From Diadema setosum (taxonomy: Eukaryota > Echinodermata > Echinoidea > Diadematoida > Diadematidae): 64,000 nt of DNA. Shown here piece after piece: positions 32,100 through 58,620 of the stretch. The notes beneath the pieces were generated by a model, which saw only the letters and a list, made by a program, of their open reading frames with translations, searched no databases and was not told where the DNA came from. Within the stretch, counting starts at the first letter, position 1. Each line of letters starts with the position of its first letter. The DNA is taken from the NCBI GenBank assembly GCA_033980235.1, contig CM067069.1, positions 21,076,650 through 21,140,649 of the forward strand, written 5' to 3'. Both the position numbers and the translations under genes were made by a program.

Positions 32100-32644
32100 G
32101 CCCTCTCGAGTCGTATGAAGACGGTACTGAAACAAATCTGACTTCGGCCCGAGACTAGACGTTACTGCGCGCGCACGAAATGATCATCGGCACCGTGATT
32201 GGAGGAACTGCTAGGAAAGCCTGAAGGAAAAGCATTCTTCACCCACAGAAATCACAGCCCGTGTAGTGTACTGCACGCACAGAAGAGTTCTGTGACTGCA
32301 CGCCCCTCGCCGCGCACAACATTCGTCCATGACATCCGTACGTGCGTATTTATACAACTGTACCCGAGCGATCCGCGAGCGTACGCAAGGCCGAAGAGAT
32401 GAGTCGAGTCGGAGCCAAAAACAAGGTTCTATCTCTTTGCAAAATTTGGTCGTCGGAGCTCGCTGATCGCGCTCGTGGCTAGCGCGCTCGCTCGATCCGA
32501 ATTTCGAGCCGCCATTTTTAACACGTGGTGTCTTCGAGCGAGAGGAGAGGTGCGCCGCTGGGTTAGTTCGAAGCATGTGGGTACGTAGGCCCTACGTGGA
32601 GAGAGTCTTCCCCGGAGGACATGTGGTAATTCAAGACCAACACG
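32100..32644 (+). promoter_or_regulatory. CpG-rich putative promoter and exon 1 of the snoRNA host gene
   Basis: CpG density rises sharply here compared with the AT-rich surroundings. A YY1-type motif, GCCGCCATTTTTA, is at 32508-32520 and an E-box CACGTG is at 32522-32527. Both are common at ribosome-biogenesis promoters. A pyrimidine start CTTCCCC at 32607 could be a 5'TOP transcription start, as known for vertebrate snoRNA hosts. A consensus donor CACG|GTAAGA at 32644/32645 would close a 38-nt exon 1. The start site is inference. Confidence 0.6.
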
Positions 32645-33103
32645 GTAAGAATTTGTCATTGTAACATAGAATCTAGATACAATCAAACATAATCTAAGTC
32701 AGAAAATCAAGCACAAGTCAGGTCAACGGAGTGGCTGTTCACTTAATTATTAATTTACATGGTATGATTCGATCGGACTTCTGCAATTCTGTTTGATCCC
32801 TGTGTCTGACAAGTTTAACAAACTTCGGGTTCACTTCAAACAATTTTAATGCCTGGGGTTGTCTTAAAGGGAGGTGGGAGGTAGAAACCCTAATTAAATT
32901 TGTAATTAAATTTACATCGAGAAGTTTATAGCCCCTTGGCCACGGCCTAATCATGATCAAAATGGGTATTCTGAGGACGTAATTAAGGTGGATTAGTTTT
33001 AGGCCTAACAATAGAATTCTTTAACTGTTAGAGCTAATTTATAATTATCTTGAATTAGGTTCCTATTCCTCCCATCTAAAAATGTTAACATACCTGGTAA
33101 CAA

Positions 33104-33283
33104 TGCAGATCCAGGAATTCCATAAAGAGGAAGTGCCTTCAACAATTACAGAATTAACGTTAAAGAAGGGAGGTGCACGCACCGCCATTTTTTTTTTCTT
33201 TTTATTTAGACCTTTTGTCTTCACAAAAATAAAGAGGGGGTGCATGCCCGTTGCGCCCCCCTCTGGATCTGCCACTGAAATAG
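33104..33283. mobile_element. hAT-type MITE, inverted copy
   Basis: The right end CTGGATCTGCCACTG is the complement of the CAGTGGCGGATCCAG terminus. The left end starts CAGATCCAGGAATTCC and seems slightly truncated. It lies in host-gene intron 1. Confidence 0.6.
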
Positions 33284-33294
33284 TTTAGCCTAAT

Positions 33295-34497
33295 GTTAGA
33301 GGGTGTCTGAACAAGTTTTGGTTGGGACATACACAGGGTGTTAACAATTGTAACATTTTTTTTTTCACATAACCTCTGATGAAATGTGAAAGAGGATGTT
33401 ATTCCAAGTGGAACTCGATGTTTATTCGATGAAAATTGGTTTTGAAATGGCTGAGATATCCAAAAGAGAGCGAACTTTGCATGGGTGACACCCATCTTTT
33501 ATTTAATACAATCGCTTTGTTTTACTTTGTTTTTGGAGGTCTCTGCCATTTCAAAACCAATTTTCATCAGATAAACATTAAATTCCTCTTAGAATGGTAA
33601 GAATGGTAGGGATATGTTCTGGGGCCGTATTCTGAGAGCTAATTAAGTGTCTGATTAGCACTTAATTAACGAATTGGTATTCTGAGAGCATGATTAAGTA
33701 GGGGGTATATTAACTACCATAGCAACAAGCGTTTTGGCGGGAAGGACTTACGCGTTTGCGCGTATCAATGCGCGTGCACCTCTGAGAGGACTTAATCACA
33801 GAGTTAATTACGAATCGGTATTCTGAGGGTGTAATTAAGTATGAAAGTTAATGGAAAACTTAATGATACCAAAGAGTGTCATTAACTACTCCGATATCAC
33901 GCAATACATCGTGTTTTCTCTGCCACAACGATGCTTACCGTCTTCGGTAACCGAGGAGCGGTTGAATGTTGTTATCGTGGTATTCGTAGAATTCAGAGAA
34001 AAAAAGAAATATAGCCGATCTTCGAGGAATTTTGTCATTTTATGTGAGCAAAGAGGTTGCGATCTTCGCGTGCGTAGGTGAGGGGTTGTAATCAAATACC
34101 AGAGTGTGCGCACGGAGCTCTTGGGTTGTAATTACAGGGGGCGTGGAGGAGCGCGCATTGAGGGCATATTTGCGCGTGTAATCATCATTTTGGCTTCTAA
34201 CAACGCGTCTGATTGGATGGAATAACAATTAGATGGGAGGGACCTAAGATAATTACAGGGGACTTAATCATACCTTAATTACGTCCTCAGAATACCGATT
34301 TTGCCCATGATTAAGGGGTAATTAACTTCACGACTTAATCACGAAGTTAATTACAGACTTAATTACGACCTCAGAATACCACCCCTGTAACTTAACTGTT
34401 TTATAGAACTAAGTCAAGTAGTTTCTTGATTTCTCACTAAAAGTTAAAAGCCCAATCCTCTCCACCAATACTATTACTAGATATACTATCCCTTTAA
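33295..34497. mobile_element. TTAA MITE (family 1) split by a nested element
   Basis: Family-1 halves are recognisable on both sides: gatgaaaattggttttgaaa near 33430, and the end ACTATCCCTTTAA at 34485-34497. They are separated by the insertion at 33621-34385. The left terminus is decayed. Confidence 0.65.
33621..34385. mobile_element. Nested MITE with repeated TAATTA theme
   Basis: The ends GGGGCCGTATTCTGAG and CTCAGAATACCACCCC are inverted repeats with two mismatches. Inside, tattctgag and gacttaatta motifs recur near both ends. The middle (33720-34200) is CpG-richer. It is inserted into the older family-1 MITE. Confidence 0.75.
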
Positions 34498-34577
34498 CGA
34501 GGTTTAAACTTTTAGCAATTTTACTCTTTGAGAGTCTATAATGTTAAAGAATCAAATTCAAAGAGTAGATTTCTGGA

Positions 34578-34684
34578 GGAGGGCAGACACAAATGATGAC
34601 ATCTCTGATAGGGACATATGAATCAGCCATGATTATTTCCTCAGAGAAACTCACTGGATCGATAGGACTGATGTGTCGCCCTCC
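34578..34684 (+). ncRNA. SNORD74: Box C/D snoRNA, SNORD74-like copy 1
   Basis: Box C ATGATGA (34593-34599) and box D CTGA (34668-34671) are closed by GACACA/TGTGTC. A further GGAGGGC/GCCCTCC stem follows after a bulged A. The guide TAGGGACA (near 34610-34617) matches human SNORD74 and pairs with UGUCCCUA of 28S rRNA. By the box+5 rule it targets the C equivalent to human Cm3820. The central 92 nt are identical to the copy at 42229, while the flanks differ. Confidence 0.85.
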
Positions 34685-37237: not shown

Positions 37238-38605
37238 TTTTATGCCTCCGCCACGAAGTGGTGCCGGAGGCATTATGTTTTCGGGTTGTCCGTCCGTCCG
37301 TCCGTCCGTCCTTCCGTCCGTCCGTCCGTCCGTCCGTCCGTCCGTCCGTCCGTCCGTCCGTCCGTCCGTCCTTCCGTCCGTCCGTAATGAATTTTGTGGA
37401 CAAGGTAACTATCGAAACCTGTTGAGGTATCCTAATGAAACTTGGCATGTATGTGTATTAGGGGGTGAAGTTGTGCCTATCAACTTTTGGGTGCACATGC
37501 TCAAGGTCAAAGGTCAAAAGGTCAAGGTCAAATACATAAAATTTCACTATTTCCACCATATCTATTGAATGCCTGAAGATATTTTCTTGAAACTTAGTGT
37601 ATACATGTTTTACCTAATTAAGATTCTCTGGTGAAAGTTTGGGTCATGAGGTCAAAGGTCAAAGGTCAAAAGGTCAGGGTCAAATACATAAAATTTCACT
37701 ATTTCCACCATATCTATTGAATGCCTGAAGAGATTTTCTTGAAACTTAATGTATACATGTATTACCCAATTAAGATTCTCTGGTGACAGTTTGGGTCATG
37801 AGGTCAAAGGTCAAAGGTCAAAAGGTCAAGTAAAAATATTAAAACTTCTTTTTTTTTCTCCGTACCTTGGAAAATTGTTCAAGGTATCTTCATGGAACAT
37901 AGTATATACATGTACTGACTGGAAGTGATTATCTAGAGAATGTAGGGTTCATGGGGTCAAAGGTCAGGGGTCAAAGGTCAAGTGCAAGACTTCAAAATGT
38001 TACTATTACCCTCATATTTATGCAATGCCAGCAGGGTTATTTTTTTACACTTGGTGTATGCGTGTGTAACCTAATAGAAATTCTCTGGAAAGTTTTTTTT
38101 TTCTCTTTTTGCCTCAAAGGTCAAAAGGTCAAAGATAAGTGAAAGTGCTGAACTAACTTTTTCCTCCATATCTCGGAAGTGGCTCAAGTTACCTTGAAAC
38201 TTAGTACATATTATGCATGTTCTACCTGAAAGTAATTATCTTATGAATTTTAGGGTCAAGGGCCAGATGAAAATGGTAACAATTTACTATTCAATTCAGA
38301 AATTGAACTTTTTCTCCACACCTGTACCTTGAAAATTACTCCATGCCTAACTGTATGAATGGGTCAAAGTCAAGTTAAAGTCCTTAAATCCCTAGATACA
38401 TGCTCTCCTATTCATCCAATTAAATCTACGTCAAGGAAGGTGAACATTCAACACATTTGTGACAAACTTGTCATTCCAATATTTTGCCAATTTGTGAAAA
38501 TGTAATCACACAGTGTCCACATGTACTATCTAGACCTATTGGGAAAATCATGCATTATGGCGGAGGCATACCAGTCGCCAAAGCGACATTTCTAGTTTTA
38601 TTTAC
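37238..38605. repeat. GCCTCCGCC-ended element with (GTCC)n array, copy 1
   Basis: It starts tatgcctccgccacgaagtg and runs into a (GTCC)n minisatellite at about 37288-37384. Repeated ggtcaaaggtcaaag blocks follow. It ends with the inverse gcattatggcggaggcata followed by agtcgcc. A second head-to-tail copy follows. Long apparent frames (RPSVRPSV) come from the minisatellite. Confidence 0.75.
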
Positions 38606-38609
38606 CTGT

Positions 38610-39525
38610 TTTTATGCCTCCGCCAATGAAGTGGCTGGAGGCATTATGTTTTTGGGGCGTCCGTCCGTCCTACGTCCGTCCCGTTTTGTTTTTGTTGATA
38701 TCTCAAGAACCGTGAGGTGGTTTTGCATCAAACTTGGCATGAGGGTATATCCTGGGGGGATGATACGTTGTTTGGATTTTAGGGTCAGGGGGTCAAAAGT
38801 CAAAGGTCACAGGTTATTTTGTGAAAAAAAAAGGTTGAGATTTCATGTTTTTCTTTTACCGATGGGCAGTGATTATCTAGGGAAGTTGGGGGTCATGGGT
38901 CAAAGGTCAGGGGGTCAAAGGTCAAGGTCAACTCCTCAAAATATCACAACTTTCCTTATATTTATGCAATGCCTGAAGGATTTTTTTAAACTTGATTATG
39001 CATGTAGAACCCAATGTATATTCTGTGGGAAGTTTCTTGCCAAAAGGTCAAAGGTCAAAGGTCAAGTGAAAGTGCTAAATTGCACTTCTTCCTCCATATC
39101 TCAAAAGTAACTCAAGATATTATCATGAAACTTACATATTCATGCATGTTCTACCTAACAGTGATTCTCTTTGGAACTGTGAGGTCAAAGGTCAAAGGCC
39201 AGGTTTAGATTTATACTTTTTCTCAATACTTTGAAAATTACTCAATGCATAAACTTATAAAAGGGTCAAAAGTCAAGTAAAAATCATCAGTTCCCCCAAA
39301 TACCTGCACTCTGACGTTTTAATCATTCATCCAATTGAACCTAGTTCTAGGAAAGTGAACATTGAGCACATTTGTGGCGAACCTGTCATTTTGATATTTT
39401 GCCAATTGTGTGAAACTGTCATCACACGTTGTCAAGACATTGTACTATAGACCTACACATTAGGAGAACCATGCATTATGGCGGAGGCATACACCAGTCG
39501 CCGTAGCGACATTTCTAGTCTTTTC
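38610..39525. repeat. GCCTCCGCC-ended element, copy 2
   Basis: It has the same start (tatgcctccgccaatgaagt), a shortened (GTCC)n tract, the same ggtcaaaggtcaa blocks and the same end (gcggaggcatacaccagtcg) as copy 1. The 208-codon frame across the junction has no protein signature. Confidence 0.7.
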
Positions 39526-40700: not shown

Positions 40701-41073
40701 TCTGCATTCTGCTGGGGGGGGGGGGGTGGTGGGATGGGTCAAGTCCAATCACATTTTAGAATTCTGGTCAAAATGAGAATATTGCAGACTACTTGAATTG
40801 AAGTACAGCATCAGTGTGTCAAGTGTATTGATTACTTGTGTAATGTATGCTGTATTTCAGTCAGGGCAGATTTCTGAGATATGAGTGAAATCAGAACACG
40901 AGGGTTTAAACGTGTTACACATAGATATTCTAAAGATGTCAAATTAAGAAATCTCTATGTAGTAAGATGTGTTACAGTAATTCAATTTGATGGTCTTCTT
41001 TTGCAGGACAATGTCATCACGATTACTTGCTGCCACAATGAAGGGACACGGTGAGGAGCCTGATGAATTCACT

Positions 41074-41614: not shown

Positions 41615-41701
41615 GTTGACACAGAGGATGACAGTATGCTCAGATCAATGAATCCAGTGTGATTAATACAAAGAAAAAGTTGATAGGACTGATGTGTCAA
41701 C
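41615..41701 (+). ncRNA. Box C/D snoRNA, unassigned
   Basis: A perfect 9-bp closing stem GTTGACACA/TGTGTCAAC frames box C AGGATGA (41625-41631, second base off consensus) and box D CTGA (41689-41692). The 3' end GATAGGACTGATGTGTC is shared with the SNORD74-like copies. The guide before box D (TGATAGGA) could pair with UCCUAUCA of 28S rRNA over 8 bp, which is weak. It ends 91 nt before the next exon. Confidence 0.75.
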
Positions 41702-42228
41702 GTGTCCTGACAAGCTTACGGAATGTAATGAGAAATTTATGAAATGTGTCCAGAAATGCTGATCAATGCATTCAATGTCTGTTTCTTACCAGATTGAGCA
41801 TTGCAAGAATTGTCAACACAAGACTTCGACATTCAGGTAAGGTGTGATTTTATTTCATTTATTGAGCACCAAATTGTGGCAGAGTTTGGAAAACCTCCAG
41901 CTGCAAAGCATTTTTAAAACAATGGACTTGAAAAAAAAAAATGGTTTTATGACTTGCAAAGTGAGGTTTTGATCACAGTTTCACATAATGTGTGTACTTT
42001 GTATAAACAGCATATATTCAGTATTGATACAAGAAATAACAGCAGTATATAATACTGCCCAGTGTATTTGATGATTATTACTGAGGAGTTACTGTACAGA
42101 TAAGAAAATGACAGGATTTTGTACAGTATTTCCATTAGATAAAAAGTGACTTAGTTTAGAAATGATGGTAATGAGGTATTTGTATATGAACTGGACAAGA
42201 TAAACCTTCGCGTAGAACCCCAGGTCAT

Positions 42229-42324
42229 GTGACACAAATGATGACATCTCTGATAGGGACATATGAATCAGCCATGATTATTTCCTCAGAGAAACTCACT
42301 GGATCGATAGGACTGATGTGTCAC
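42229..42324 (+). ncRNA. SNORD74: Box C/D snoRNA, SNORD74-like copy 2
   Basis: The stem GTGACACA/TGTGTCAC encloses box C ATGATGA (42238-42244) and box D CTGA (42313-42316). The guide TAGGGACAT before a degenerate D' box (ATGA) matches human SNORD74 and the Cm3820 site of 28S rRNA. It ends 88 nt before the exon at 42413. Confidence 0.88.
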
Positions 42325-42550
42325 TAACATTGACTGAAATCTTGATACGTCCAACTCTGCGGCTTCTTCCTTCTACGCACTGTATCAAACTCTTTTCCAT
42401 TTACTGCTCTAGGCACATGTGTGGTCTGAAGAAGAAATTACCAAGGTAGCCAGCAAGAGCATTATATGGTAAGTCTTTAGCCTGTACAAGCATAATATAC
42501 TGCATATTGCCCATTCTGGGATGCAGTTTTCGTGACAACTGTTTGCACAC

Positions 42551-42640: not shown

Positions 42641-42677
42641 GACGTGTACAGTTCCGAGTATGTAGTTTTACATTATG

Positions 42678-42853: not shown

Positions 42854-43901
42854 TTATGTGCATTGGTAAATTTGCTTTTATTCTGGCATCTATAGTAATC
42901 TGATGTGAACTGACATTTAAAGTAAATCAAAGTAAATAACATCAAGAATTTCAGCCGATATCCAATACCCTTACATTTAATGGGGGGTCGAGGGATTACA
43001 TTTTGTGTTTATTATTTACTATTTACTATTAGTAAGGCTGAAAACAAGCTGCAAATATGTTAATTTCTTTAATGATCATGCTGGAAATGAAATTAAATCA
43101 TCCACAATTTCTGGCTCATATTCTGCTGTATTTAGACTTACAACAGTAGTCCACTTTTCAATTGAAAGTGTTTCAGTGAAGTAATTTCAGTGTTTTCTCA
43201 CAGGTGCTGCAGTCTTCGAGATGGTGACTATTCTTCCACCCAATGGCTGATAGATCACTTAGTGGATCACTCACATGGGTCAGTATGTGCTTCATTAATA
43301 CAATAAACAGTTTTCAATACAGATGATTCTCTTTTTAAATAGACAATGTTTGTGTGAAGCAAACTCTTCAAAATTTCTCCATGTTTCTACAACTCTCAGC
43401 CTGTGGTAAAGATTATTTTGTTTAGTACAATGGGGCCCATTTGATGGAAGCTCTTGTACTTTCCACAAGCTTTGAATGCAGGTGACTTATTTCATCGGGG
43501 GCCCGTTGCATAAAAGTTACAATTTTGGTAACTTTCTAGCAACGGGCCCCAGAGCAGCGTGTGAATTAGGTATGATCATACTAAATACTTCTATGTGAGG
43601 TAATAGAGAGTATAGGATTCCTGGGATATCTTCTTGCTGACTTAGAACTACCTGCTACATTTTTCTTAATCCTTAAAATGAAAATTCATCACTTCTCTTC
43701 CACATGTCAAAAAGAGATCGTGTTTGAATGATTTAAGAGTTAAAAGAAAGAAAGATAATGCATGCTACAACTAGCCCATTTCAAGATGCTTTGCACATCC
43801 CAGTTATGATAGGCATGGCTTTTACTTCTGCAGCATAATGTTTGTGTTGGTGTATCCACATTGACAAAATAAATTTATTTAAATCTTAGTGTGGAAGGCA
43901 G

Positions 43902-43977
43902 TGTATCTGTGATGACAGTATTTGCTACTCTTGACAGTGAGTGATGACAATTAATCACCAAGATCGCTGAGATTCAC
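43902..43977 (+). ncRNA. SNORD76: Box C/D snoRNA, SNORD76 copy 1
   Basis: Box C GTGATGA (43909-43915) and box D CTGA (43967-43970). The D' guide TATTTGCTACTCTTGA is as in human SNORD76 and pairs with AGUAGCAAAUA of 28S rRNA, the A2350 region. The caatTAATCACCAAGAT segment before box D resembles human AACCACCA. It ends about 103 nt before exon 44080. Confidence 0.92.
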
Positions 43978-44589
43978 GCTTCCACACAGCATATGGTAGA
44001 AGAGTAATGCTTTATTCCTTCTGACATGTTACTTTATCTGCACAAAGGTTGATTTGATTTCCTGTTTATCTTTTCATAGGCAAGATTGACTGAAAAACCA
44101 ACATGATGTAGAGCTCTGGGTTGTATCTACCACTCTGTACTTGCACAAGGTAATTATGAAATCAGAAGTCTTCATTAACATCCACTTTTACTACAATTCA
44201 AAGATTAGTGACCTAATGTGATCACAATTTTAGACTTGGCATCCTCTGCCATTATAAACCTGTATGTGGTAGTATTTTAGCTCCAATTCTTGTCCTGCAG
44301 TTCGGTGTGATTGAGTAATGTGTGATTTTTTTTTTTTTCTGCAGTAATTGAAAAAAATATTCATAGCATGTGGAGACTGTTCACTCAATCAAGTTTCATC
44401 TTTGTGTTAATATTTAAGACATTTAAGTAGCCAGAAGCATCTGATACATGGATGTTACAAATTCTTTGGGTGCTGTGTTTCATTTATTTGACTCATGATA
44501 ACAACTTTGTGTGGGACTTTATTGAGGATTACCTGCATTCTGGGATGCAGTGAACATTGTCAGTAATGGCATCCTCTTACAACAAAATG

Positions 44590-44673: not shown

Positions 44674-45325
44674 CCTGTCAGAATAAATGAACTGTTGTCT
44701 GTCTGTTAGTGAGTGCACTTTGAAGTTAATACTTCTTTTGATTTATTTCTTAACAGGGTGCTGCTTTTCAGGACTGTAACAGCAAAATGAGGAACATGAC
44801 AGATGGTATGAAAAGCAAAACCAACATTGTTATACAATTTTTTTTTTAATGAATCATAAGATATGATGGATTATTCATTGTTGTCCTTGACCATGTTGTG
44901 AATAGTAAAGTAGCAAACATACGGGGACCCGTTGCATAAAGTTACAATTATGGTAACTTTCCAGCAACAGGCCCCAGATCAGCGTGTGAATTAGGTGTGA
45001 TCATACTAAATACTTCTATGTGAGGTGATAGAGAGTATAGGATTCCTGGGATATATTCTTGCTGACTTAGAACTACCTGCTGCATTTTTCTTGAGGCTTA
45101 AAATGAAAATTCATTACTTCTCTTCCACATGTTAAAAAGAGATCGTGTTTGAATGATCTAAGAGTTAAAAGAAAGAAAGATAATGCATGCTACAACTAGC
45201 CCATTTCAAGATGCTCTTTTGCTTTGCACATGATAGGCATGGCTTTTTCCTCTGCAGCGTAATGTTTGTGTTGGTGTAATCACATTGACAAAATAAATTT
45301 ATTTAAATCTCTGTGTGGAAGGCAG

Positions 45326-45401
45326 TGTATCTGTGATGACAGTATTTGCTACTCTTGACAGTGAGTGATGACAATTAATCACCAAGATCGCTGAGATTCA
45401 C
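45326..45401 (+). ncRNA. SNORD76: Box C/D snoRNA, SNORD76 copy 2
   Basis: This is the copy in the second duplication unit. Box C is at 45333-45339 and box D at 45391-45394. The snoRNA is unchanged relative to copy 1, including TTTGCTACTCTTGA. Confidence 0.92.
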
Positions 45402-46043
45402 GCTTCCCCTCAGCATATGGTAGAAGAGTAATGCTTTCTTCCTTCTGACATGTTACTTTATCTGCACAAAGGTTGATTTGATTTCCTGTTTATCTTTTCA
45501 TAGGCAAGATGGACTAAAAAACCAACATGATGTAGAGCTCTGGGTTGTATCTACCACTCTGTACTTGCACAAGGTAATTATGAAATCAGAAGTCTTCATT
45601 AACATCCACTATTACTACAATTCAAAGATTAGTGACCTAATTTAATCACAATTTTAGACTTGGCATCCTCTGCCTTTATAAACCTGTTTGTGGTAGTATT
45701 TCAGCTCCAGTTCTTGTTGTCTTGTAGTTTTCATTTGTTAGTGGTATGTATGATTTATTTATTTTATTTTATTTTCTATCTGTAATGATTGAATAATGTG
45801 CTGAAAATATTCATAGCATGTTTGGACTGTTCACTCAGTCAAGCTTCATCTTTATATTAACATTACAGATATTTTGATAGCCAGAAGCATCTGATGCATG
45901 GATGTTGCAATCCTTTTGGTGGTGTTGTTCCTCTATAAGTTTGACTCCCGATTACCACTTTTTGTGGGGCTTAATTGAGGATTATCTGCATTCCGAGATG
46001 TGGTGAACATTGTCAGTAATGGCATCCCCTTACAAGAAAATGG

Positions 46044-46126
46044 TCTGTATGTGATGAGCCTACATTATTGGATATGATCTCTGTGATTATATACACAGTG
46101 TAGCGACTAGGGCGGACTGATACAGA
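46044..46126 (+). ncRNA. Box C/D snoRNA, family A copy 2
   Basis: This is the second-unit copy. TCTGTA/TACAGA stem, box C GTGATGA (46051-46057), box D CTGA (46117-46120) and the same GCGACTAGGGCGGA guide. It ends 83 nt before exon 46210. Confidence 0.88.
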
Positions 46127-46778
46127 CCTGTCAGAATAAATGAACTGTTGTCTGTCTGTTGGTGAGTGCACTTTGGAGTTAATACTTCTTTTGATTTCTT
46201 TCTTAACAGGGTGCTGCTGTTCAGGACTGTAACAGCAAAATGAGGAACATGACAGATGGTATGAAAAGCAAACCCAACATTGTTTTACCATTTTTTTAAT
46301 GCATCATAAGATATGAGGGATTATTCATTGTTGTCCTTGACCATTTTGTGAATAGTAAAGTAGCAAACATTTAAAATGATGTGTAATAAGCCAATCAAGA
46401 CTTCCTTTATCCTGAGATTTTTTTAAATTTAGTTTTCTCTCCATGAGAGGAAAACAGTATATTGTTCGTAGTAATTAGATGTAGACTGAGTCGCACTTCA
46501 CCTGGTCCTGACATATTTCATTTGATATGAACAGTTGGTGTGGTGGGACAGAAAGATCACAAAGCTGGTGATACTTGGATAAATAGCATGATCACTCTTA
46601 ATAATTAATGTGCATTCTTTTCAGGGATCTATGTCAGACAGAAAAATTTGACTAGAATATCTGCTGTCACACAGTTGTGTGCAACTTCAAGGAAGAACCA
46701 TGTCATTCTTTTCTTTTGTACCCTATCATTGGAGTATTACATTTTTTTTAGCATTGTGAGTAGTGCTTTGTTAAATTA

Positions 46779-46863: not shown

Positions 46864-47265
46864 TAACAAGTTCCTGCTTACAGAGCCTAAATTTTGTATG
46901 TCTCCCTTTTGCAATTATTGAATGGCATTATGAGATCTTGTCTGCATGTGTTCTCTTTGATTAGGACCAACCTTCACTGCGCTTTGTGCTGATTACACAT
47001 GGTGAGTACATCTATTAAAGTGTGCTAGTTAGTAACAAGATGAAGCAGTTTCTCTTTCAGATCAAAATGAGTTTGCACATCAACTTGTTTAGAGTGTGAT
47101 GTATTTCAAAGAGCAGTCAGTCGCACTATTGACGTAACAATCTGAAAACAATTTTATAGACCTGCAAAGAATGAACTTGTTTTAGTAGATGATTTATCAA
47201 GTACTTAGTAGGTCGTTATAGTGTGAAATAGTCCCTTCTCTTGTGAAAATGGTTTCTTGTGAATG

Positions 47266-47350: not shown

Positions 47351-48164
47351 CTATGAAATCAGCAGTCCTCTTGTGTGATGTCTGAATGATTAGAATTAAA
47401 GAGATGTTTAAAATCTTGATATCTTTACAGGGAAACAAGTTGGATTAAAGCCAAAAAGCAGAAGTAAGTGTGTTTAATAATGCATTGAAATGTGCCCATA
47501 AGCAGAAAGCTGCTTTTTAGAAATGCTGTTTTAATGTGAGCATTTTCTTGAAGTAAAACTGGAGAAAACCAAGAAAACGAAAGAAAAATATATATTCTGG
47601 TTTAAAAATTAACCACAAGTACAGAGTCTTAGCAGGAAAGTAAAACATTGTGATCATGTTGGAGAAACAAGCTACACTTGGGTTTATACTAGTTTTACTT
47701 ATATTTTACAGTATCATGTTGTATGGATCAGGAATATGAATCATTAGCACAGCATGAACAAGGCTTTTTTTTTGTTTTGTTTTTTAAGAAGAAAAGAAAA
47801 AAACCATTGTAATCTAAGCTCACCATAATATGCGTGAAATTTCATGTTGACAGTTATTCCTATGCATAGTGGGAGGGGTTCATCTGGGTGAAATTTTCAC
47901 TGTTTTATGGGTGAGTTACTACCAAGTTTGCTTTAGTTATTGGACTTAAAGTGTGTCATTTTGCCTACTATAGCAGGTTTTGCAAGTAGTCATTTATGTG
48001 CATGTGGAGTTAATTCATATTAAGAGTTTTTTGAAATTGCCTCAGGGCTTGTAAGGCTTGCATGATCTTGTAGTACACATTTTCTTGCTCCAAGCAAAAA
48101 CAATGATTCGTGCTTGTGGTAAATTATGCACTGCACAACCTGAAGATTACCCAGGAGTTCTCAT

Positions 48165-49774: not shown

Positions 49775-49830
49775 ATACGACGTATTTGCAATTCCCTTTC
49801 CAAGAAGTTTTCTGGAGCCTACTCAGAAAG
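49775..49830 (+). ncRNA. GAS5-like: Host-gene exon with GC donor
   Basis: The acceptor is ttcccccacag. The exon ends CAGAAAG|GCAAGT, a canonical non-GT (GC-AG) donor with an otherwise perfect consensus. The following intron carries a SNORD80-like gene. Confidence 0.55.
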
Positions 49831-50143: not shown

Positions 50144-50873
50144 TTTCCATGATCAAACCCTTGAAACTTTCGTGCCTTGACACCTTGGTTGAGTGCAGTC
50201 TGGATATACAGGACGCTCCCTCTACAACAAACGTGATAATAAGAAAATTTTGTTGCAACAAAGTAAAAATTGAGGTCCCAAAATAATAATTATCAAAGTA
50301 TGTGATGCAAGATTGCCTTTCGATGTAATGAAATTTCAATATTACAAAATTTTGATGTAACAACAACAAAATATGCTACTCCCAAGGAGTTTGCTGTAAT
50401 GGGAGTCACCTGTACCATTTCTTTTTGAGTCATGTGAATTGTTCCTGTTAGTCAACTAGGAAAGCTGGCAAGCCAGTTAACACTGTTGAGTCTTGTAAGA
50501 GGAGCCTGAAAACAGTGAAATAAGTTAAACTTGGGACATGATATTTAAAACACTTTTCTCGATCTACAGGTTGGCTTTGTTTTGGTCCCCTAGCTGTTGG
50601 TCATGTTCAGGACAGTTTCAAAAAGGTAAGCTTGTCATGTGACAAACAAGCATTCATTAGATCAATTTAAAAAAAAGTGTGAAATAATTATCAGTTCCAC
50701 GATTTGATGTAATCTTGATGAATTTCAGAGACTGGTGCTCACAGCTTGTCATTACAATGTAACACATCAGACATATATTACTGTGAAAATGGAAATTTTG
50801 GTGAATTTCCTGTGACTAGAAACTAGTGCAAAAATAGAAGCGCACAAATATTTTTGCCTGTTACATGTAGCAC

Positions 50874-51468: not shown

Positions 51469-52173
51469 TATTTTTTCAAAGCTTAGCACATGAGTAGCAT
51501 TACTTGTTGCCATATTCAAGGAATGTTGGCCTGTTTTCTCTTATTCAGAACGGCGGGAGAGGGGTGTGTCCAACATAATTAAGTGACCACACCTCCTTGG
51601 TGAGTAACACATGTCATCTCCTTCCACATTCTACTCTGTCTAGTCTACCCTTGTCATATGTCACACATTGTTCAGTATATAAGTCTGACTTCAGGACAAC
51701 ACTACCCAATGGCACTCTTAGAAGTGTAGCATCAATCAAGTTGAATCTCAAAAAAGTACCTAGATTAAATAACTAGTGTATAAAGAAGTTCAAAATATGC
51801 ATGTTTACAGAAATTCGTCTTTATATATGTCATTCTAAGCGCAACTCCACAAAGTCATTTTTTTTTTTAGATGCGAGGTTGTAGTTACCACAGCTGTAGT
51901 ATAAGAAAATCAAGACTGCAAGGCTTCTGTAAAGTGAAGGCATATACATGAACACACAGCTCGTGTTTGCAAACATGGTGCTAGTGTATAGACTCGATTA
52001 ATGTTAGTGTTGGCATACACATTCTCACAGATTTTTATCCTTCCATGGCAAGTGCCAGTGTTGTCATGCACAGACAAAGGACTTGTGTCTGGACATACCA
52101 TTAATGAGGGTTTGCACCGTGCCAAATTGGTGTACACAGTGTCAGATTGATGTACACATCAGAGCTTTGATAC

Positions 52174-52259: not shown

Positions 52260-53218
52260 TTTACAGTGAGTTCAGTTTGTTCCTCATTACCAGAGTCTGT
52301 CTTCTCATTCCTCACCAAATTATTCCTATTTCAGATTTGGGGTCCTTCTTAACTGTTGCAATATCAGGGGCTGAGTTTGTTTGTTTGTTTGTTTGTTTGT
52401 TTTTTTTTTTTTCGGGGGGGGGGGGGTGGGGTGGAGTTGGTTGGAAGCTGTTAAACCATCTACAAGGAAGGTTGTAAATGTACACTGCATGTCATTGCAG
52501 TTCAAAATAATATTGTTGTGGTATCACATTTATTATATGATAATATGTTTAATGCCATGTTATTATGTCAGTGTAATGTTGGATCTTTCCATGCAGGATT
52601 GATGCAGTTAGCAAGATAGCCAGAGTAGGCTTTCCTTTGATGGCTGAGACTTTGAGCAGCAAAGAATATAGTAAGTGCAAGTCAGACACTAGGTTTGACA
52701 AGATGTGTTGAAATTAAACATGTAATACTAAAGGTTCTGCAAACAGATTGCAACTTTAATGCAGTATAAGTCTTGATGAAAGTCATGGAAGTCCTAAAAC
52801 AGATAATTCATGACGAAGTGGAGGATTGTATTTGTACTGTTTTCTGATTTCCATGACGGATATGTCAGTGAATATAAGAGAGTTGTACAATATGAAACCA
52901 GTAAAAACAAAAAGATAAGAATGATGTTACTGGCAATGTTTATATAAAATTTCACATTACAGAATATTAAGTTCCATAAAATTTGCTAGAGTCATGTAGG
53001 TGGGATGTTAGCAGTAGTGCAATTGACAGTTATTCTATTCGCAACCGATACCATTTTATAGTGTCGGGCGAGTGCAAGATCTGACTTATAAGCGGTTCTC
53101 ATATCGTTCTTGAGCTCATCATGGAGACGATTTCACTATGCAAAGCGCATTGATCAGTATCGTAATATTTGCAATGTGCTGTGTAAGACTTAGCTATTCC
53201 TGTTATTTTTATAAGTAG

Positions 53219-53301
53219 CAGAGCAATGATGAAATCATCGAATGTCCCCGTATGAAATGAGATGATTATTTTCGTTATACCCTCATTTTATCTGAGCTCT
53301 G
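53219..53301 (+). ncRNA. Box C/D snoRNA, family B copy 1
   Basis: CAGAGC/GCTCTG stem, box C ATGATGA (53226-53232) and box D CTGA (53292-53295). The D'-side guide CGAATGTCCCCG ends at a degenerate D' box (ATGA). It could pair with CGGGG(A/G)CAUUCG of 18S rRNA. It holds the position of SNORD78 in GAS5 and shares an AATGTC...TGAAATGAG pattern with it, but homology is uncertain. It ends 90 nt before the next exon. Confidence 0.85.
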
Positions 53302-53880
53302 TGGAATCCCTCCTACTGGATAGATAAACAATATGAATTATTTGGGTTTCAAGTTACATGCTTTGTGTCTTGGTATTTGTTTAAACCATAGGTTTCTGCA
53401 TGCGAGAGCTTCTCGGATGATACACATTTTTGCCAGAGTCAAGAAAGTGATCCGGTATGAAGAAGGTAAGCATTAGGGACCGTGTGTATACAAAAAGGCA
53501 AGATTAAAGCTATTGGAAGTTCTTTTGCACAGATGTTCTGATAGAACATGTGCCTTTTCAATTTTCTTGTGCGTGTATTAAAAGCCAGTAAGGAGTTGCA
53601 TTAAGCACTTGATTAGATAAAGGTAATCTGATGAAAACAATATAGTGTGACTGGGATTGTAGCAGTGGTGCCATTGATGATAACTAGTTCACAGCCAAGA
53701 GCTTTTCAGCATCGGAAAAGTGCAAGACTCCACTTTATATCTCAAACGCAGCACTTGTATTCTTTTTTGAGCGCCTCTTTGAGGCAGTTTTACTCTGTAA
53801 AGTGCCTTGATCAGTATCATCTTTGAGATATGCTATATAAAAAATTATAAAAGAATATTTATTATTCTTCTTATAAGCAG

Positions 53881-53963
53881 CAGAGCAATGATGAAATCAT
53901 CGAATGTCCCCGTATGAAACTAAGGTGATTATTTTCGTTTTACCCTCATTTATCTGAGCTCTG
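53881..53963 (+). ncRNA. Box C/D snoRNA, family B copy 2
   Basis: The same CAGAGC/GCTCTG stem, box C ATGATGA (53888-53894), box D CTGA (53954-53957) and identical 5' guide. Changes are confined to the middle loop. It ends 93 nt before exon 54057. Confidence 0.85.
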
Positions 53964-54792
53964 TTGAATCATGTGACTAGATGCAACAAATGCTATACAG
54001 ATTGTTTTGATTCGAAATTATGGTTCTTCATGTCTTTGTACTTGTTTAAACCACAGGTTTCTTTGTGCAAGAACTTCTTGGACAATATATGCATTCTGCC
54101 AGAGGTCAAGAAGGTGATGTGCAGAAGGTAAGCATTGAGGATCAAGTCTATAGTATGAGTGAAAAGCAAACCGATTGACTGATATGAACATTGCTTTCTT
54201 ACAGCTTTTTATTTACATGTAATACTGCACAACACACTTGCCTGAAATAACAACTTCCCGTAACTTTGCAAAGGGGAACATGCAGTAAGAAAAAATAGAA
54301 AGAAAAGAAAACAACTGCCTCAAACAATTAGTTTTTCACTTTGCATTTTTACATTGTGCTGATAAAGTGTATTGTCCATACCTCAAAACTAGGCAAAAGT
54401 GGTAAAGCACTTTGTACTTAGTTCTTTGTGCATCTCTTTCATGTTAATCGTAACCTTATTCAGGAAAAGGGTGGGGGTAGCTTAAAATGAAAACTGATAC
54501 AGAGCCTGTCTTTGCATACGATAATGATCTGTTATTATAGTGTGGCATACAGTGATTGAAGTTGTCCAATGGGAATGGATGTAATTCAAAATTCTAGGGG
54601 AAATTTCTTCTAATGCTATACCCCAATGAGAAACAATAGGGGCACTGAGTCATCATAATACATAGCATCATTGTAATGTCAAGTGCCATCCTTGAATGGA
54701 AGAATTCTATTTATAAGTCCTGTTGAGTTTTACTTTGATGTTTTTATTTTGCATTAGCTGATTGTTAAAACTGAATCATGAGTAATGAGCGA

Positions 54793-54863
54793 ATGACCAG
54801 TGATGAGCCATAGTTACGAGTGATCCACCTGAACACTGATGTCACAAAAGTCTCTGAGGTCAT
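54793..54863 (+). ncRNA. Box C/D snoRNA with predicted 5.8S rRNA guide
   Basis: ATGACC/GGTCAT stem, box C GTGATGA (54800-54806), D' CTGA (54829-54832), C'-like CTGATGT and box D CTGA (54854-54857). The 12 nt just before D' (CGAGTGATCCAC, 54817-54828) are perfectly complementary to GUGGAUCACUCG near the 5' end of 5.8S rRNA. The box+5 rule points to the A at about human position 17. Human 5.8S has a known Um14 nearby. Confidence 0.85.
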
Positions 54864-55889
54864 ACACCTGCATGATCTACATGTACCAGTATAATTTGCC
54901 ATTGCTGGTGAAAAATGTCTTCAGTATACTTTTGCTTGGACCTTGTAAAATGCATGATACATCAAAATCAATTCGTCTTTTGGGAATGAGAGTTGAGATA
55001 CTTATTGTCAGTATGCAATGCAGAATCTGGCAAATTTGAGTTTTTACCAGAGTGGTTTATTGGGATGTTATTGGGAGTATACTTAAATGAATGTATATTT
55101 ATTCCTACAGGATGCCAAAGCTGATAAACCTGAACTGATGGGATGATGTGCAGCAGAAATTATAGACTCTGAGGTAATTTACCTATTTGGCATGCCATGT
55201 GCTCTGTGGAAGGGAGCATCAATTGAGCTATGTGTTCACTTCAAATTCTTTGGTGACCATAAACCATGTGACTTGAGTGACAAAATGACTTCATTCTTTG
55301 TTCCTTTGGCAACGACTGCAAAGTCTTGTGCTACTGTTCACCGGTATGCATCCTTAATCTTTTGCAGCAGGCTTTGCATTCATCTACACAGGTAGATTTG
55401 CAATAACAATTCAAATGGTGATAAGACAGGAAATGGCAAGCTATTATTGATGATTTCAGACAAATGGCAGTTGTGGTAGCTAGAGCTTATCACATTGCTA
55501 GTGTTATCGGCAGTGTCCCCCATATGTATAATATTGATAATGCTCCTTTGGTTGAGGAATCAAAGAAATGTAAGTCAAAGTTGATTTTCATGTGATATAA
55601 AAGTTACCCACATAGAAGTAGTTGGCTTGTTGACTGTCTTGTAATTAGTTGCTGTACAGTTTTAACACAATATGTGTTCCTATTGCCTTGTGGTGATATG
55701 CTGGCCTGTCTCTACACTCCACATCCTAGTAACACTGCATTACATGAAGGTCTGATTACATGGCTAGGTATGTGACCAGCCAAGTATCAACTTTTTTTTT
55801 TTGTCTGCTCACAGTGATTGTAATTGAGGACGTATGACCTTTGACCTGAACTTTGATATTATTTTTTTTTAGAAAGGCATCATGGTTGA

Positions 55890-55986
55890 CCTGTAGATGA
55901 TGACTTGCACAATGCAATGGGAATCTCTCTGAAAATCCCATGAAGATGAACATTGTTGGCAACGTAGTTGTCATCCTGATACATGG
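55890..55986 (+). ncRNA. SNORD79: Box C/D snoRNA, SNORD79
   Basis: Box C ATGATGA (55897-55903), D' CTGA (55929-55932) and box D CTGA (55976-55979). The guide ATGGGAATCTCTCTGA is as in human SNORD79. The box+5 rule selects A in AGAGAUUCCCA of 28S rRNA, human Am3809. This lies 11 nt from the SNORD74 target, as expected. The closing stem is short (TGTA/TACA plus flanking pairs). Confidence 0.93.
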
Positions 55987-57370
55987 TGAACATGATGCCA
56001 AGCTCTCCAAACTCTACTCCAGATTTAAACTCACACCTTTGCTACTGTGTCTATAACTTTCATCTTGTGGTATTGTTGAAGTTTCCAGCGTTGCCTTGTG
56101 TTACTGTATGGTCAACAAATGCTATGCCACTCTTACCTGCCAAATTGAACTTTGCTCTGTATCAGCGTTATTCATTCTCCATGTAAACATTGATGGCTTC
56201 GCAGAACTTGATACATTACGTCTCTATGTTTCGTGCATATAATTCATTTGTTCTTCCCTCTTCCCTTCCACATTTGTCGTCCCTTCTGTCTATCCCCTCT
56301 CACTCTTCTTCCTCCTGTCTCTTCGTACACCCTCTACATTTTAGTCTCCCTTTCAGACTGGTGGGCAGGCAGGAAACCTCAACACCCCTCGGTGTTGCAG
56401 TATTTCTCTCATTACAGTAACATCATCACGGTAAGTTAATGTGAATTAGTCCAGAGAGTCTCCATTTTCCAGCTATCGCTGGTAATTCCCATCAATCATG
56501 GCAAAGACAACATGTAAACATCAGGTAAAACCCCACTAAGTAGAGTCCATACTTGCAAACTGTCCCTTTTTAATTGGGACATTCCTTATTTTTGGCAGTT
56601 TAAGTGCCATCTTTGGGGATTTTTTTTTTTTTTGGGGGGGTCCATATTTTTTCCCCAAAATCTGTATAATGTAATGAATAGGAAATTCAAGAATGTCCCT
56701 CTTTCGTAAAGGTAGTACTCCAAATTGTCCCTATTTCTTATTTTTTAAGGTTGGCAAGTATGAGAGTGACTATGATGTTCTGCATGGCACATTTTCCATG
56801 GGGATACTCTTTGATGTGGTTGTTCAAAGAAAATGATGACATGAAAAATGTAACCGACAATTAAGTATACATTGAAAGAATCATCGCAAATGTAATGCAG
56901 CTTGTTGCATTTAAGAGAGGAGTGAACAAGATGCTTATTGCCTTGTAGTCTGTAGTAAATATCCAAGACAAAGGTTTGTACATGATATATATCTCTAATG
57001 GAAAGGCTTAACAATTCACATTGTATGAATATTCGAATATTTTTGTAGATTATAAAATCCTGAGATTTATGTTGGAGAAATGGTAAAGGTCAGTCTGTTA
57101 AAACTTATATGAAGACTGTTAGTAAACAGGTAATTGGCATGATGAGATTTGCTGCCCGTTAAAAACATACAGTGTTGTAGGGAAGGACTCCTCGCATGTT
57201 AACTTGTCCCTCAGCCGATTATAGACAAGTTTTATATGCTCTATGACATCGAAGTAAAACTAATGCCCATTTTTAGTTTTCCCCAAGTCTTATGCTCCCC
57301 TCAATCGTATGAAAATACTACAAAGCTCTTCAGTAAGTAGTTTGAATAATTTGCATTACTTGACTTTCAC

Positions 57371-57479
57371 TTGTGGTGCCCCAGTGATGCTTGATTCTGC
57401 CAAATGAGAGCCACAAAAGAGTTGGCACAGAGTGATTCCAAATTTTCCCGTTTCGCAATACTTCTGAGGGGCACCACAA
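57371..57479 (+). ncRNA. Box C/D snoRNA candidate at the SNORD47 position
   Basis: A perfect 12-bp stem (TTGTGGTGCCCC with its complement) frames box C GTGATGC (57384-57390, last base off consensus) and box D CTGA (57464-57467). It lies between SNORD79 and SNORD81, where human GAS5 has SNORD80 and SNORD47. The guide before box D (CGCAATACTT) has only a partial match to 18S GUAUUGCG, so the target is unknown. It ends 125 nt before exon 57605. Confidence 0.75.
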
Positions 57480-58091
57480 TCAGTAAGTCTCAAATATATT
57501 GGAATATATATAGCATGTCTGTGTGTGTACATATAAGCTTGTATTACTTGTGGCTGATTGTTGTTGCTCTCTTTTCCTTCCCATTGTTCTTGGTCTTTTG
57601 GCAGGTATTGCCACAAGATTACCTTCTACACTAACATCACTCGGAGATGATCTTGGAAGCTAGCAAGTCGGAAATTTAGGTATGAAAGTATGGAAACCTT
57701 TAAAAAAAATTTGAACGCAAGCTTGGCACAACTGACTGAGCTGAAAGTAGATGACATAAGATTTATCAGATTTTGTGTATCTTTTTTAAATGTAGCCGTT
57801 GTGGAGAAGATGCAATTTTGCAAATATAACAATGAAAGAATCTAAATGAAGAATTGGGAAAAAGAAGGTAATGTTATCATGCTTATGTCCAGTTTGGAGA
57901 AATGGTCAAAAGAGAAGGGTCTTCAGAAAAGGCATGTCATGTTGTAGAATTTGGAAGAGGATAAGGGATAGGCAAATAGCAGGATTTGCTCATGTGAAGT
58001 CTGTAGATTGACAATGAGGAAGAAGATGCTAATCAGAGGTTTATGGAGGGAGGATTGTGTTTTGTCCTGCTATCCAACATGGATGATTCTT

Positions 58092-58173
58092 GTGTGTGTG
58101 ATGATTCATTGTCCTCTTGAACTCTCTCACTGAAGCCTATGTGCACTGTGGACCCACTTCTATCTGATGCACG
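58092..58173 (+). ncRNA. SNORD81: Box C/D snoRNA, SNORD81
   Basis: Box C GTGATGA (58098-58104), D' CTGA (58130-58133) and box D CTGA (58164-58167). The guide CCTCTTGAACTCTCTC is as in human SNORD81 and is perfectly complementary to GAGAGAGUUCAAGAGG of 28S rRNA, the Am391 region. As in human GAS5 it is the last snoRNA of the array. Confidence 0.95.
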
Positions 58174-58494
58174 TGAAATTCCATGTTGTGATGCAAATAA
58201 CTTCACATTTGTAGAATTTTCTTTGATATGATAAGGAAAGAAGAGACCACGATTGCCCAGTTGGGAAATTAAGAATTAATTCATTGCTTCGGGCTGTAAT
58301 GATAAGAAAAGAAATAGAACGATTTCTGTGTCAAGTTACATCGACTTGGACATACCGTGTGTGTCGTGAATTCCATTTAACCATGTTCAATTTATTTATT
58401 GGCGTGTGATGCTAGATATCTTTAGGTCAAACTCATGATAGACTTTGTGGAGAGGATACTGACGGAATGATAGCCATTCATGACCTCTGTACAG

Positions 58495-58620
58495 GTGTCA
58501 AGTAGCGAGTGATTGTTCAATCTTTGGATACATTGTGCCTACCAATTACTACAGCAGCCTGAAGAACATGTAAGGAATTGGTCATGTTGAGCAAAATAAA
58601 AAACAAAAACAAACAAGCTA
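58495..58620 (+). terminator. GAS5-like: Terminal exon and poly(A) signal of the host gene
   Basis: The acceptor cctctgtacag precedes an exon with no downstream donor. AATAAA at 58595-58600 lies in an A-rich stretch. This ends the gene just after the SNORD81 intron. Confidence 0.65.

What the first reader, a model, noticed from the sequence alone, without database searches (positions are those of the whole stretch)
32607..58620. A GAS5-like snoRNA host gene with 20 C/D snoRNAs in an invertebrate
Twenty box C/D snoRNAs sit about one per intron in a transcript with no conserved frame. Four have guides that I could pair to the same rRNA sites as human GAS5 snoRNAs over long perfect or near-perfect stretches: SNORD76 (28S A2350), SNORD44 (18S A166), SNORD79 (28S A3809) and SNORD81 (28S A391). 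SNORD80 (28S G1612/A1521) pairs apart from one G-U, and SNORD74 (28S C3820) pairs over 8 bp. The order 74-76-77/80-44-B-79-candidate-81 follows the human order 74-75-76-77-44-78-79-80-47-81. This implies that the host gene and its snoRNA order predate vertebrates.
Basis: partly seen in the sequence, partly recalled or inferred. Interest (0 to 1): 0.95.

Follow-up and report, generated by a model that had tools for sequence, protein, structure and literature searches.

The report
Sea urchin counterpart of GAS5
A sea urchin carries what looks like its own version of GAS5, the vertebrate gene whose transcript is cut up to release small RNAs that direct chemical marking of ribosomes, with the small RNAs it shares in the same order as in chicken, so the gene is probably older than the vertebrates.

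Summary
Confirmed, with corrections. The window is from a sea urchin: its upstream gene encodes a collagen galactosyltransferase 99% identical to that of Diadema setosum. Between 32.6 and 58.6 kb lie 20 box C/D snoRNAs, all on + strand; a scan found 18 on + and 0 on -, against 0.3 per shuffle. A splice model, completed by eye, puts one in each of 20 introns between 21 short exons with no long reading frame. Seven guide families of vertebrate GAS5 are present: 74 (weak), 76, 77/80, 44, 79, 47, 81. Among 4879 recalled rRNA positions, known GAS5 sites rank 1, 2, 4, 7, 9, 10 and 12. The shared order equals chicken's, including two SNORD80s where mammals have SNORD77 (PMC2653536). Corrections: "SNORD76" copies are SNORD24/76 double guides; "B" pairs with an 18S site, not that of SNORD78; four copies are SNORD43-like; no SNORD75 or SNORD78 guide was found. 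No expression data. No GAS5 outside vertebrates appeared in the paper listings I saw. Most likely a true GAS5 orthologue, placing gene and order at or before the common ancestor of echinoderms and chordates.

The parts
34593..34671 (+). C/D snoRNA a1, SNORD74-like (28S C3820, weak), in the 8.4 kb first intron
   Evidence: C/D boxes and stem; 92 nt identical to 42231-42322; RF00357 23.6 bits; extended outer stem
41626..41692 (+). C/D snoRNA a2, C box AGGATGA-type; shares 17 nt at its 3' end with a1/a3 but lacks their D' guide; D guide pairs 12 bp with 18S near A360
   Evidence: missed by the scan; no Rfam match
42238..42316 (+). C/D snoRNA a3, SNORD74-like (28S C3820, weak)
   Evidence: RF00357 23.6 bits
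42558..42633 (+). C/D snoRNA b; D' guide 10 bp to the yeast-type 28S, one base beyond C3820; lies at the place of SNORD75 without such a guide
   Evidence: no better than shuffles by energy; no Rfam match
43909..43970 (+). C/D snoRNA c1, SNORD24/76 double guide (D 28S C2338, D' 28S A2350)
   Evidence: SNORD24 56.5 bits
44598..44667 (+). C/D snoRNA d1, SNORD43-like (18S C1703, duplex with a 2-nt bulge)
   Evidence: RF01174 29.1 bits; best duplex -27.4 kcal/mol, below 12 of 12 shuffles; rank only 101 when no bulge is allowed
45333..45394 (+). C/D snoRNA c2, SNORD24/76 double guide, identical to c1
46051..46120 (+). C/D snoRNA d2, SNORD43-like
   Evidence: RF01174 28.6 bits
46786..46857 (+). C/D snoRNA d3, SNORD43-like
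   Evidence: RF01174 26.7 bits
47273..47344 (+). C/D snoRNA d4, SNORD43-like
   Evidence: RF01174 26.7 bits
48174..48242 (+). C/D snoRNA c3, SNORD24/76 double guide
   Evidence: SNORD24 45.0 bits
50064..50135 (+). C/D snoRNA e1, SNORD80 (D 28S G1612, D' 28S A1521)
   Evidence: RF00309 59.8 bits
51387..51459 (+). C/D snoRNA e2, SNORD80 (D 28S G1612, D' 28S A1521)
   Evidence: RF00309 57.1 bits
52183..52252 (+). C/D snoRNA f, SNORD44 (D guide to 18S A166), C box AGGATGA-type
   Evidence: RF00359 33.1 bits, E 0.14; rank 4 of 4879; missed by the scan
53226..53295 (+). C/D snoRNA g1, D' guide 12 bp (one G-U) to 18S near G934; at the place of SNORD78
   Evidence: within the shuffled range by energy
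53888..53957 (+). C/D snoRNA g2, second copy of g1
54800..54857 (+). C/D snoRNA-like h, no convincing rRNA target (orphan, doubtful)
   Evidence: boxes and stem only; no coherent target; no Rfam match
55897..55979 (+). C/D snoRNA i, SNORD79 (D' 28S A3809)
   Evidence: RF00152 37.7 bits, E 0.0057; rank 9 of 4879
57384..57467 (+). C/D snoRNA j, SNORD47 (D' 28S C3866)
   Evidence: rank 10 of 4879; -18.9 kcal/mol, below 12 of 12 shuffles; RF00281 only 22.8 bits, and g1 scores 23.4 with the same model
58098..58167 (+). C/D snoRNA k, SNORD81 (D' 28S A391, 19 bp)
   Evidence: rank 1 of 4879; -34.8 kcal/mol; RF00136 26.2 bits
32607..32644 (+). predicted exon 1 (start taken from the finding; CTTCCCC, possible 5'TOP)
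   Evidence: donor ACG|gtaaga; start not shown
41007..41050 (+). predicted exon 2
41793..41836 (+). predicted exon 3
42413..42468 (+). predicted exon 4
43204..43278 (+). predicted exon 5 (weak donor)
44080..44149 (+). predicted exon 6
44757..44805 (+). predicted exon 7
45504..45573 (+). predicted exon 8 (in the duplicate unit, counterpart of exon 6)
46210..46258 (+). predicted exon 9 (in the duplicate unit, counterpart of exon 7)
46965..47001 (+). predicted exon 10
47431..47463 (+). predicted exon 11
49775..49830 (+). predicted exon 12 (GC donor)
50570..50625 (+). predicted exon 13
51549..51599 (+). predicted exon 14
52597..52670 (+). predicted exon 15 (an acceptor at 52335, nearer to snoRNA f, was not used)
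53392..53465 (+). predicted exon 16 (weak acceptor)
54057..54127 (+). predicted exon 17 (resembles exon 16)
55111..55173 (+). predicted exon 18
56357..56430 (+). predicted exon 19
57605..57679 (+). predicted exon 20
58495..58620 (+). predicted last exon with AATAAA at 58595-58600
   Evidence: end taken from the finding

Best explanation
This is the sea urchin orthologue of GAS5. One RNA polymerase II transcript is spliced from short non-coding exons. Each of about 20 excised introns releases one box C/D snoRNA, which forms a snoRNP and guides 2'-O-methylation of 18S or 28S rRNA at the base paired five nucleotides upstream of box D or D'. Seven guide families and their order are shared with vertebrate GAS5 and were inherited from an ancestral deuterostome gene. 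The sea urchin line then duplicated some units (74-like, 24/76, 43-like, g) and has no SNORD75 or SNORD78 guide that I could find. Shown here: boxes, stems, strand bias, guide positions, order, splice signals. Inferred: transcription, splicing, snoRNP assembly, methylation, common descent.
For: 18 C/D loci on + versus 0 on - and a mean of 0.3 in 20 shuffles; 5 Rfam matches above gathering and 27 of 41 at E <= 10 in C/D families, versus 1 of 14 in the control half. GAS5 target sites rank 1, 2, 4, 7, 9, 10 and 12 of 4879 positions; of nine GAS5 sites put to 200 shuffled guide sets, six were never matched, two (A1521, C3820) once, and the ninth (SNORD78) 190 times because it is absent. In an energy scan the best duplex falls on the expected site for all 8 guides assigned to a GAS5 site: six of them (c1 D', e1 D, e1 D', f, i, k) with human rRNA, j with the yeast stretch first and the same human site next, a3 only with the yeast stretch. 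Order 74, 76, 80, 80, 44, 79, 47, 81 equals chicken introns 1, 3, 4, 5, 7, 9, 11, 12. 11 of 20 snoRNAs have a 3' splice site 80-112 nt after the D box, against 2.1 on average in 2000 circular shifts, 1 of which reached 11. Species: 99% identity to a Diadema setosum protein over 100% of the query. Random-draw model: 7 of 8 families out of the 9 in chicken GAS5 among 83, P 7e-8; counting neither 74 nor 76 as GAS5 members, 5 of 8, P 2e-4; order of seven 1/5040, of five 1/120.
Against: No RNA data. No SNORD75 or SNORD78 guide. Four of 20 snoRNAs are SNORD43-like and three match SNORD24 in Rfam; neither family sits in GAS5 in chicken (Table 1 of PMC2653536), human SNORD24 is in RPL7A (PMC3412847, passage) and, by recall, SNORD43 in RPL3. 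The counterparts of five of the seven GAS5 families score below Rfam's gathering threshold, SNORD47's model scores g1 slightly above j, and the control half has sub-gathering microRNA matches with E down to 7e-5. By duplex energy a, b, c1 D', e1 D', g1 and i do not beat 12 shuffles each. Nine of 20 snoRNAs lie 138-6336 nt from the acceptor chosen in the model. The upstream neighbour (COLGALT) is not a GAS5 neighbour named in the papers seen.
Confidence: 0.9

Rival explanations
1. A real non-coding snoRNA host gene that gathered the same snoRNAs independently; the resemblance to GAS5 is convergence driven by snoRNA mobility and by relatedness among the guides (74/79 and 77/80 have related guide families).
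For: snoRNAs are argued to move between hosts (PMC3511168, abstract and passages); the locus also hosts types that are not in GAS5 (43-like, 24, g). With 74 and 76 set aside the chance estimate is only 2e-4 times 1/120.
Against: Seven shared families in the same order, with the SNORD80 doublet at the same place as in chicken.
Confidence: 0.06
2. A clustered array of snoRNA copies, some dead, that is not one spliced gene.
For: a1 is a copy identical to a3 over 92 nt, 6.3 kb from the chosen acceptor; nine of 20 snoRNAs lie 138-6336 nt from it; a2 and f have variant C boxes; h has no target.
Against: Acceptor spacing is non-random, though c1/c2 and d1/d2 are recent duplicates and f's near acceptor was not the one used in the model; guides are kept while flanks diverge, e.g. 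g1/g2 81 of 86 against 71 of 100 on both sides, d3/d4 84 of 88 against 58 and 62 of 100.
Confidence: 0.03
3. Vertebrate contamination or a misassigned vertebrate contig.
For: The order matches chicken.
Against: The linked COLGALT gene is 99% Diadema, 70-71% to two other urchins and at most 56% to the vertebrates among the 120 listed hits; the a and j guides score better with the yeast-type 28S than with the human one.
Confidence: 0.01

Closest known systems
Vertebrate GAS5 (human: 12 exons, 10 C/D snoRNAs; PMC10743478, passages) and the chicken gas5-like host gene CR387333 (PMC2653536, sections 5 and 14 and passages)
   Same: Short non-coding exons, one C/D snoRNA per intron; guides for 28S C3820 (weak here), A2350, A1521/G1612, A3809, C3866, A391 and 18S A166 in the same order; two SNORD80 copies between 76 and 44 as in chicken.
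   Different: 20 rather than 10 snoRNAs; no SNORD75 or SNORD78 guide found; extra SNORD43-like copies and an 18S G934 guide; SNORD24 and SNORD76 functions in one RNA; other flanking genes; about 26 kb long with an 8.4 kb first intron.
Drosophila Uhg genes (Uhg1 hosts 16 snoRNAs; PMC4430873, passages)
   Same: Non-coding multi-snoRNA host gene architecture in an invertebrate.
   Different: The main text holds no mention of GAS5 and the passages do not list the Uhg1 targets; correspondence of content or order with GAS5 was not tested.
Sponge SNORD24 in an RPL5 intron (PMC3412847, passages)
   Same: Same family as c1-c3 (28S C2338).
   Different: In a ribosomal protein gene, not in a non-coding cluster.

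Membership tests
GAS5 snoRNA host gene | Set of guides 74, 76, 77/80, 44, 79, 47, 81 | tested here: met
   Seven of the nine chicken GAS5 families by target position; 74 only weakly, 76 as a 24/76 double guide
GAS5 snoRNA host gene | SNORD75 and SNORD78 present (not constant: numbers and orders vary between vertebrates, PMC2653536 section 14) | tested here: not met
   SNORD78 site G4593 rank 3930 of 4879; no match to either family at E <= 10. For SNORD75 the exact base was not mapped; judged from Rfam and the top-ranked sites only
GAS5 snoRNA host gene | Order of snoRNAs | tested here: met
   Colinear with chicken introns 1-12 for the shared members
GAS5 snoRNA host gene | One snoRNA per intron, short exons, no long ORF | tested here: met
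   In the model: 20 introns with one each; 20 of 21 exons 75 nt or less; longest ATG ORF 76 aa. The exons were chosen partly by eye, so this is a prediction
GAS5 snoRNA host gene | 5'TOP start | tested here: inconclusive
   CTTCCCC at 32607; no start-site data
GAS5 snoRNA host gene | Expression, NMD sensitivity, growth-arrest accumulation | not testable with these tools
   No RNA data
GAS5 snoRNA host gene | Conserved neighbours | tested here: not met
   Upstream gene is COLGALT; neighbours already differ between fishes and mammals (PMC5024134, passage), so this does not define the gene
Box C/D snoRNA | C and D boxes, terminal stem, guide next to D or D' | tested here: met
   18 of 20 by scan, 2 with variant C box added by eye; h has no target, b and a2 no known one
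SNORD24 and SNORD76 | D' target C2352 (24) or A2350 (76); D target C2338 (24) | tested here: met
   c copies: A2350 rank 7 and C2338 rank 3; C2352 rank 2152, so SNORD24's second site is not met

The most novel reading that the evidence does not exclude
GAS5 is an ancient animal gene whose ordered set of guide RNAs has been held together as a unit since before echinoderms and chordates split, against the view that intronic snoRNAs drift freely between hosts; vertebrate SNORD24/76 and SNORD77/80 then arose by splitting the double guides still seen here.
Probability: 0.6. Interest if true: 0.82.

Novelty: new member of a known kind. Interest (0 to 1): 0.72.

Why it matters
GAS5 is studied mostly as a mammalian growth-arrest and tumour-suppressor lncRNA. 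An orthologue with the same guide order in a sea urchin would make it one of the most deeply traceable lncRNA genes, would show that its oldest shared content is the rRNA-guide cargo, and would give a case against free mobility of intronic snoRNAs. It also yields direct predictions: specific methylated rRNA bases in sea urchins, two of them (18S near G934 and A360) at places for which I recall no human guide.

Tried and rejected
Fetching real eukaryotic rRNA: two conserved rRNA motifs searched in viral contigs, 0 hits each; I then used recalled human rRNA and compared its spacings with published ones. Reading g as SNORD78: rejected, site rank 3930; g's pairing to 18S G934 is rank 5 in the base-rule scan but within the range of shuffles by energy. 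Reading b as SNORD75: no supporting guide. h: no target found, kept as orphan. a2 was first taken for a decayed copy of a1/a3; it shares 17 nt with them but its overall identity (66 of 95) hardly exceeds that of unrelated flanks, and its D guide pairs 12 bp with 18S (rank 6), so it is left open. SNORD74 by energy is no better than shuffled guides; it rests on the target base, on its place, on the plant RF00357 match and on the listing of plant snoR44 as equivalent to U74 and U79 in Table 1 of PMC2653536. Splice model: the automatic search left several introns unresolved; exons were then fixed by reading donors and acceptors, so 'one per intron' is partly my choice. Single-strand folding of 8 of the 20 loci gave z below -2 for three and nothing for five. 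Pfam on five other ORFs found only the reverse transcriptase. Literature: all ten searches used, several with capped lists; I saw listings, and passages or sections of ten papers. None showed a GAS5 outside vertebrates; subscription papers and preprints are not held, so 'unreported' reaches no further than that.
Full report

Species. The + strand gene upstream is a procollagen galactosyltransferase. Seven of its exon pieces, joined as one protein of 444 aa, match a Diadema setosum protein at 99% over the whole query; the next named hits are the sea urchins Lytechinus pictus and Strongylocentrotus purpuratus at 71 and 70%, and no vertebrate among the 120 listed exceeds 56%. Diadema setosum is an echinoid. 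The window is therefore from Diadema, D. setosum or a close relative.

Targets. I took 61 candidate guides (upstream of each D box and each D'-like box of the 20 loci) and scored each against all 4879 positions of recalled human 18S and conserved parts of 28S, requiring the fifth-nucleotide rule. The best positions are: 1, 28S A391 (SNORD81, locus k); 2, 28S G1612 (SNORD80, e); 3, 28S C2338 (SNORD24, c); 4, 18S A166 (SNORD44, f); 5, 18S G934 (g); 6, 18S A360 (a2); 7, 28S A2350 (SNORD76, c); 8, a GC-rich 28S position (e2, presumably chance); 9, 28S A3809 (SNORD79, i); 10, 28S C3866 (SNORD47, j); 11, an off-register c match; 12, 28S A1521 (SNORD77/80, e). SNORD74's C3820 is rank 31 with human 28S; with a recalled yeast stretch a and b both reach 10 bp, b one base further on. 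SNORD78's G4593 is rank 3930 and SNORD24's second site C2352 rank 2152. 18S C1703 is rank 101 because the d guide carries a two-base bulge; by duplex energy it is the best site for d. Against 200 sets of shuffled guides the observed score was reached 0 times at A391, G1612, A166, A2350, A3809, C3866 and C2338, once at A1521 and at C3820, 109 times at C2352 and 190 times at G4593.

Reliability of the rRNA. The spacings between sites (91, 12, 11 and 46 bases for A1521-G1612, C2338-A2350, A3809-C3820 and C3820-C3866) equal those between the chicken sites in Table 1 of PMC2653536 (1469/1560, 2112/2124, 3319/3330, 3330/3376), and A166 and C1703 fall at positions 166 and 1703 of the typed 18S. A391 could not be checked this way: it stands at position 397 of my typed 28S piece, and its name rests on the SNORD81 guide itself and on the weak Rfam SNORD81 match at k. 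The D. setosum rRNA was not available.

Duplex energies. I scanned 15 guides, one copy per family. The best duplex falls on the assigned site for c1 (both guides), d1, e1 (both), f, g1, i, k and a2 with human rRNA; for j the yeast stretch is best and the same human site next; for a3 and b only the yeast stretch gives it; the two h guides found nothing coherent. Against 12 shuffles each, k, j, d1, e1 D, c1 D, f and a2 lie below every shuffle; a3, b, c1 D', e1 D', g1 and i lie within the shuffled range, so those rest on exact position rather than on strength.

Order. Chicken introns hold U74 (1), U75 (2), U76 (3), U80 (4), U80 (5), a novel RNA (6), U44 (7), U78 (8), U79 (9), U47 (11), U81 (12) (Table 1 and text of PMC2653536). 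The window has 74-like a1, then a2, 74-like a3, b, then 24/76 copies with 43-like copies among them (c1 d1 c2 d2 d3 d4 c3), 80, 80, 44, g, g, h, 79, 47, 81. Every shared member is in the same order, including the SNORD80 doublet; the chicken authors suggest that mammalian U77 evolved from such a U80. b stands where U75 stands and g where U78 stands, but their guides differ. Under a random-draw model 7 of 8 shared families among 83 has P 7e-8; with c counted as SNORD24, 6 of 8 has 6e-6; leaving out 74 as well, 5 of 8 has 2e-4; the order of seven, six or five families adds 1/5040, 1/720 or 1/120. Relatedness of guide families makes these numbers rough.

Gene structure. A 3' splice site lies 80-112 nt after the D box for 11 of 20 snoRNAs, against 2.1 on average in 2000 circular shifts (1 reached 11); for 60-115 nt it is again 11, against 3.4 (2 reached 11). 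Two caveats: c1/c2 and d1/d2 are recent duplicates, and for f the acceptor counted (52335) is not the one I used in the model (52597). A hand-completed model gives 21 exons of 33-126 nt and 20 introns, each with exactly one snoRNA; the 1285-nt spliced sequence has 13 to 29 stops per frame and no ATG ORF over 76 aa. Nine snoRNAs lie 138-6336 nt from the chosen acceptor; for c3 an inverted-repeat insertion at 48685-49552 accounts for more than half of the 1533 nt. Exons are predictions, not observations.

Evolution within the locus. A 1.4 kb unit holding c and d is duplicated; c1 and c2 are identical over 78 nt while their flanks are 90 and 97% identical; g1/g2 (81 of 86 against 71%) and d3/d4 (84 of 88 against 58 and 62%) are conserved within diverged flanks. 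Selection on the snoRNAs would give this; for a1/a3, 92 identical nt in unrelated flanks look more like a copy moved into intron 1. e1/e2 and c1/c3 share long exact stretches only over the guides, so those duplications are old.

How it most likely works. As for GAS5: Pol II transcription, splicing, release of one snoRNA per intron, snoRNP assembly and 2'-O-methylation of the named bases. The sequence shows the guides; the biochemistry is inferred from established C/D snoRNA biology.

What is known. PMC2653536 (sections 5 and 14, passages) describes the chicken gas5-like gene and calls it a hotspot of snoRNA expansion in vertebrates; PMC5024134 (passages) reports that the GAS5 neighbourhood of fishes is not that of mammals; PMC3511168 (abstract, passages) argues that intronic snoRNA positions are not stable across eukaryotes and does not mention GAS5 in its main text. 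Passages of PMC10743478, PMC10234308, PMC11405852, PMC13071498, PMC3412847, PMC4430873 and PMC9710044 were also seen and name no GAS5 in an invertebrate. The ten searches' listings, several of them capped, show none either. The locus therefore seems to be a new, very distant member of a known gene, with an evolutionary claim that can be tested directly.

Limits. One locus, one species, no RNA, recalled rRNA, SNORD74 weak, SNORD75 and SNORD78 not found.

Noticed in passing
231-24007 (+), exon pieces at about 0.3, 17.7, 19.5, 21.3, 21.8, 23.0 and 23.7 kb: Procollagen galactosyltransferase (COLGALT) gene on the same strand as the snoRNA host gene. By recall, human COLGALT2 and GAS5 both lie in 1q25; one gene is weak evidence of linkage.
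   Followed up: partly
1026-2663 (-): Reverse transcriptase ORF (Pfam RVT_1, E 5e-32), probably a retrotransposon.
   Followed up: no
34586-34677 and 42231-42322: 92-nt snoRNA copies 100% identical in unrelated flanks; boundaries coincide with the terminal stem, and the 5' copy has a longer outer stem, as if a snoRNA had been copied into intron 1.
   Followed up: partly
48685-49552 and 50874-51238: Two large foldback (inverted-repeat) insertions inside introns of the host gene.
   Followed up: no
37486-39220: Repeats rich in AGGTCAAAGGTCA (nuclear-receptor DR1-like half sites), beside a GTCC array at 37288-37385.
   Followed up: no
41626-41692, D guide: 12-bp perfect complement to 18S near A360, a place for which I recall no human guide.
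   Followed up: partly
53226-53957, D' guides: Two copies with a 12-bp guide to 18S near G934; possibly the site of Drosophila Me18S-G962 (recalled, unchecked).
   Followed up: no
27260-27434: Five perfect tandem copies of a 35-bp unit.
   Followed up: no
11804-11885 and 12058-12125: Hairpins matching microRNA families mir-4536 and mir-1255 below their gathering scores, on both strands, so probably palindromic repeats.
   Followed up: no
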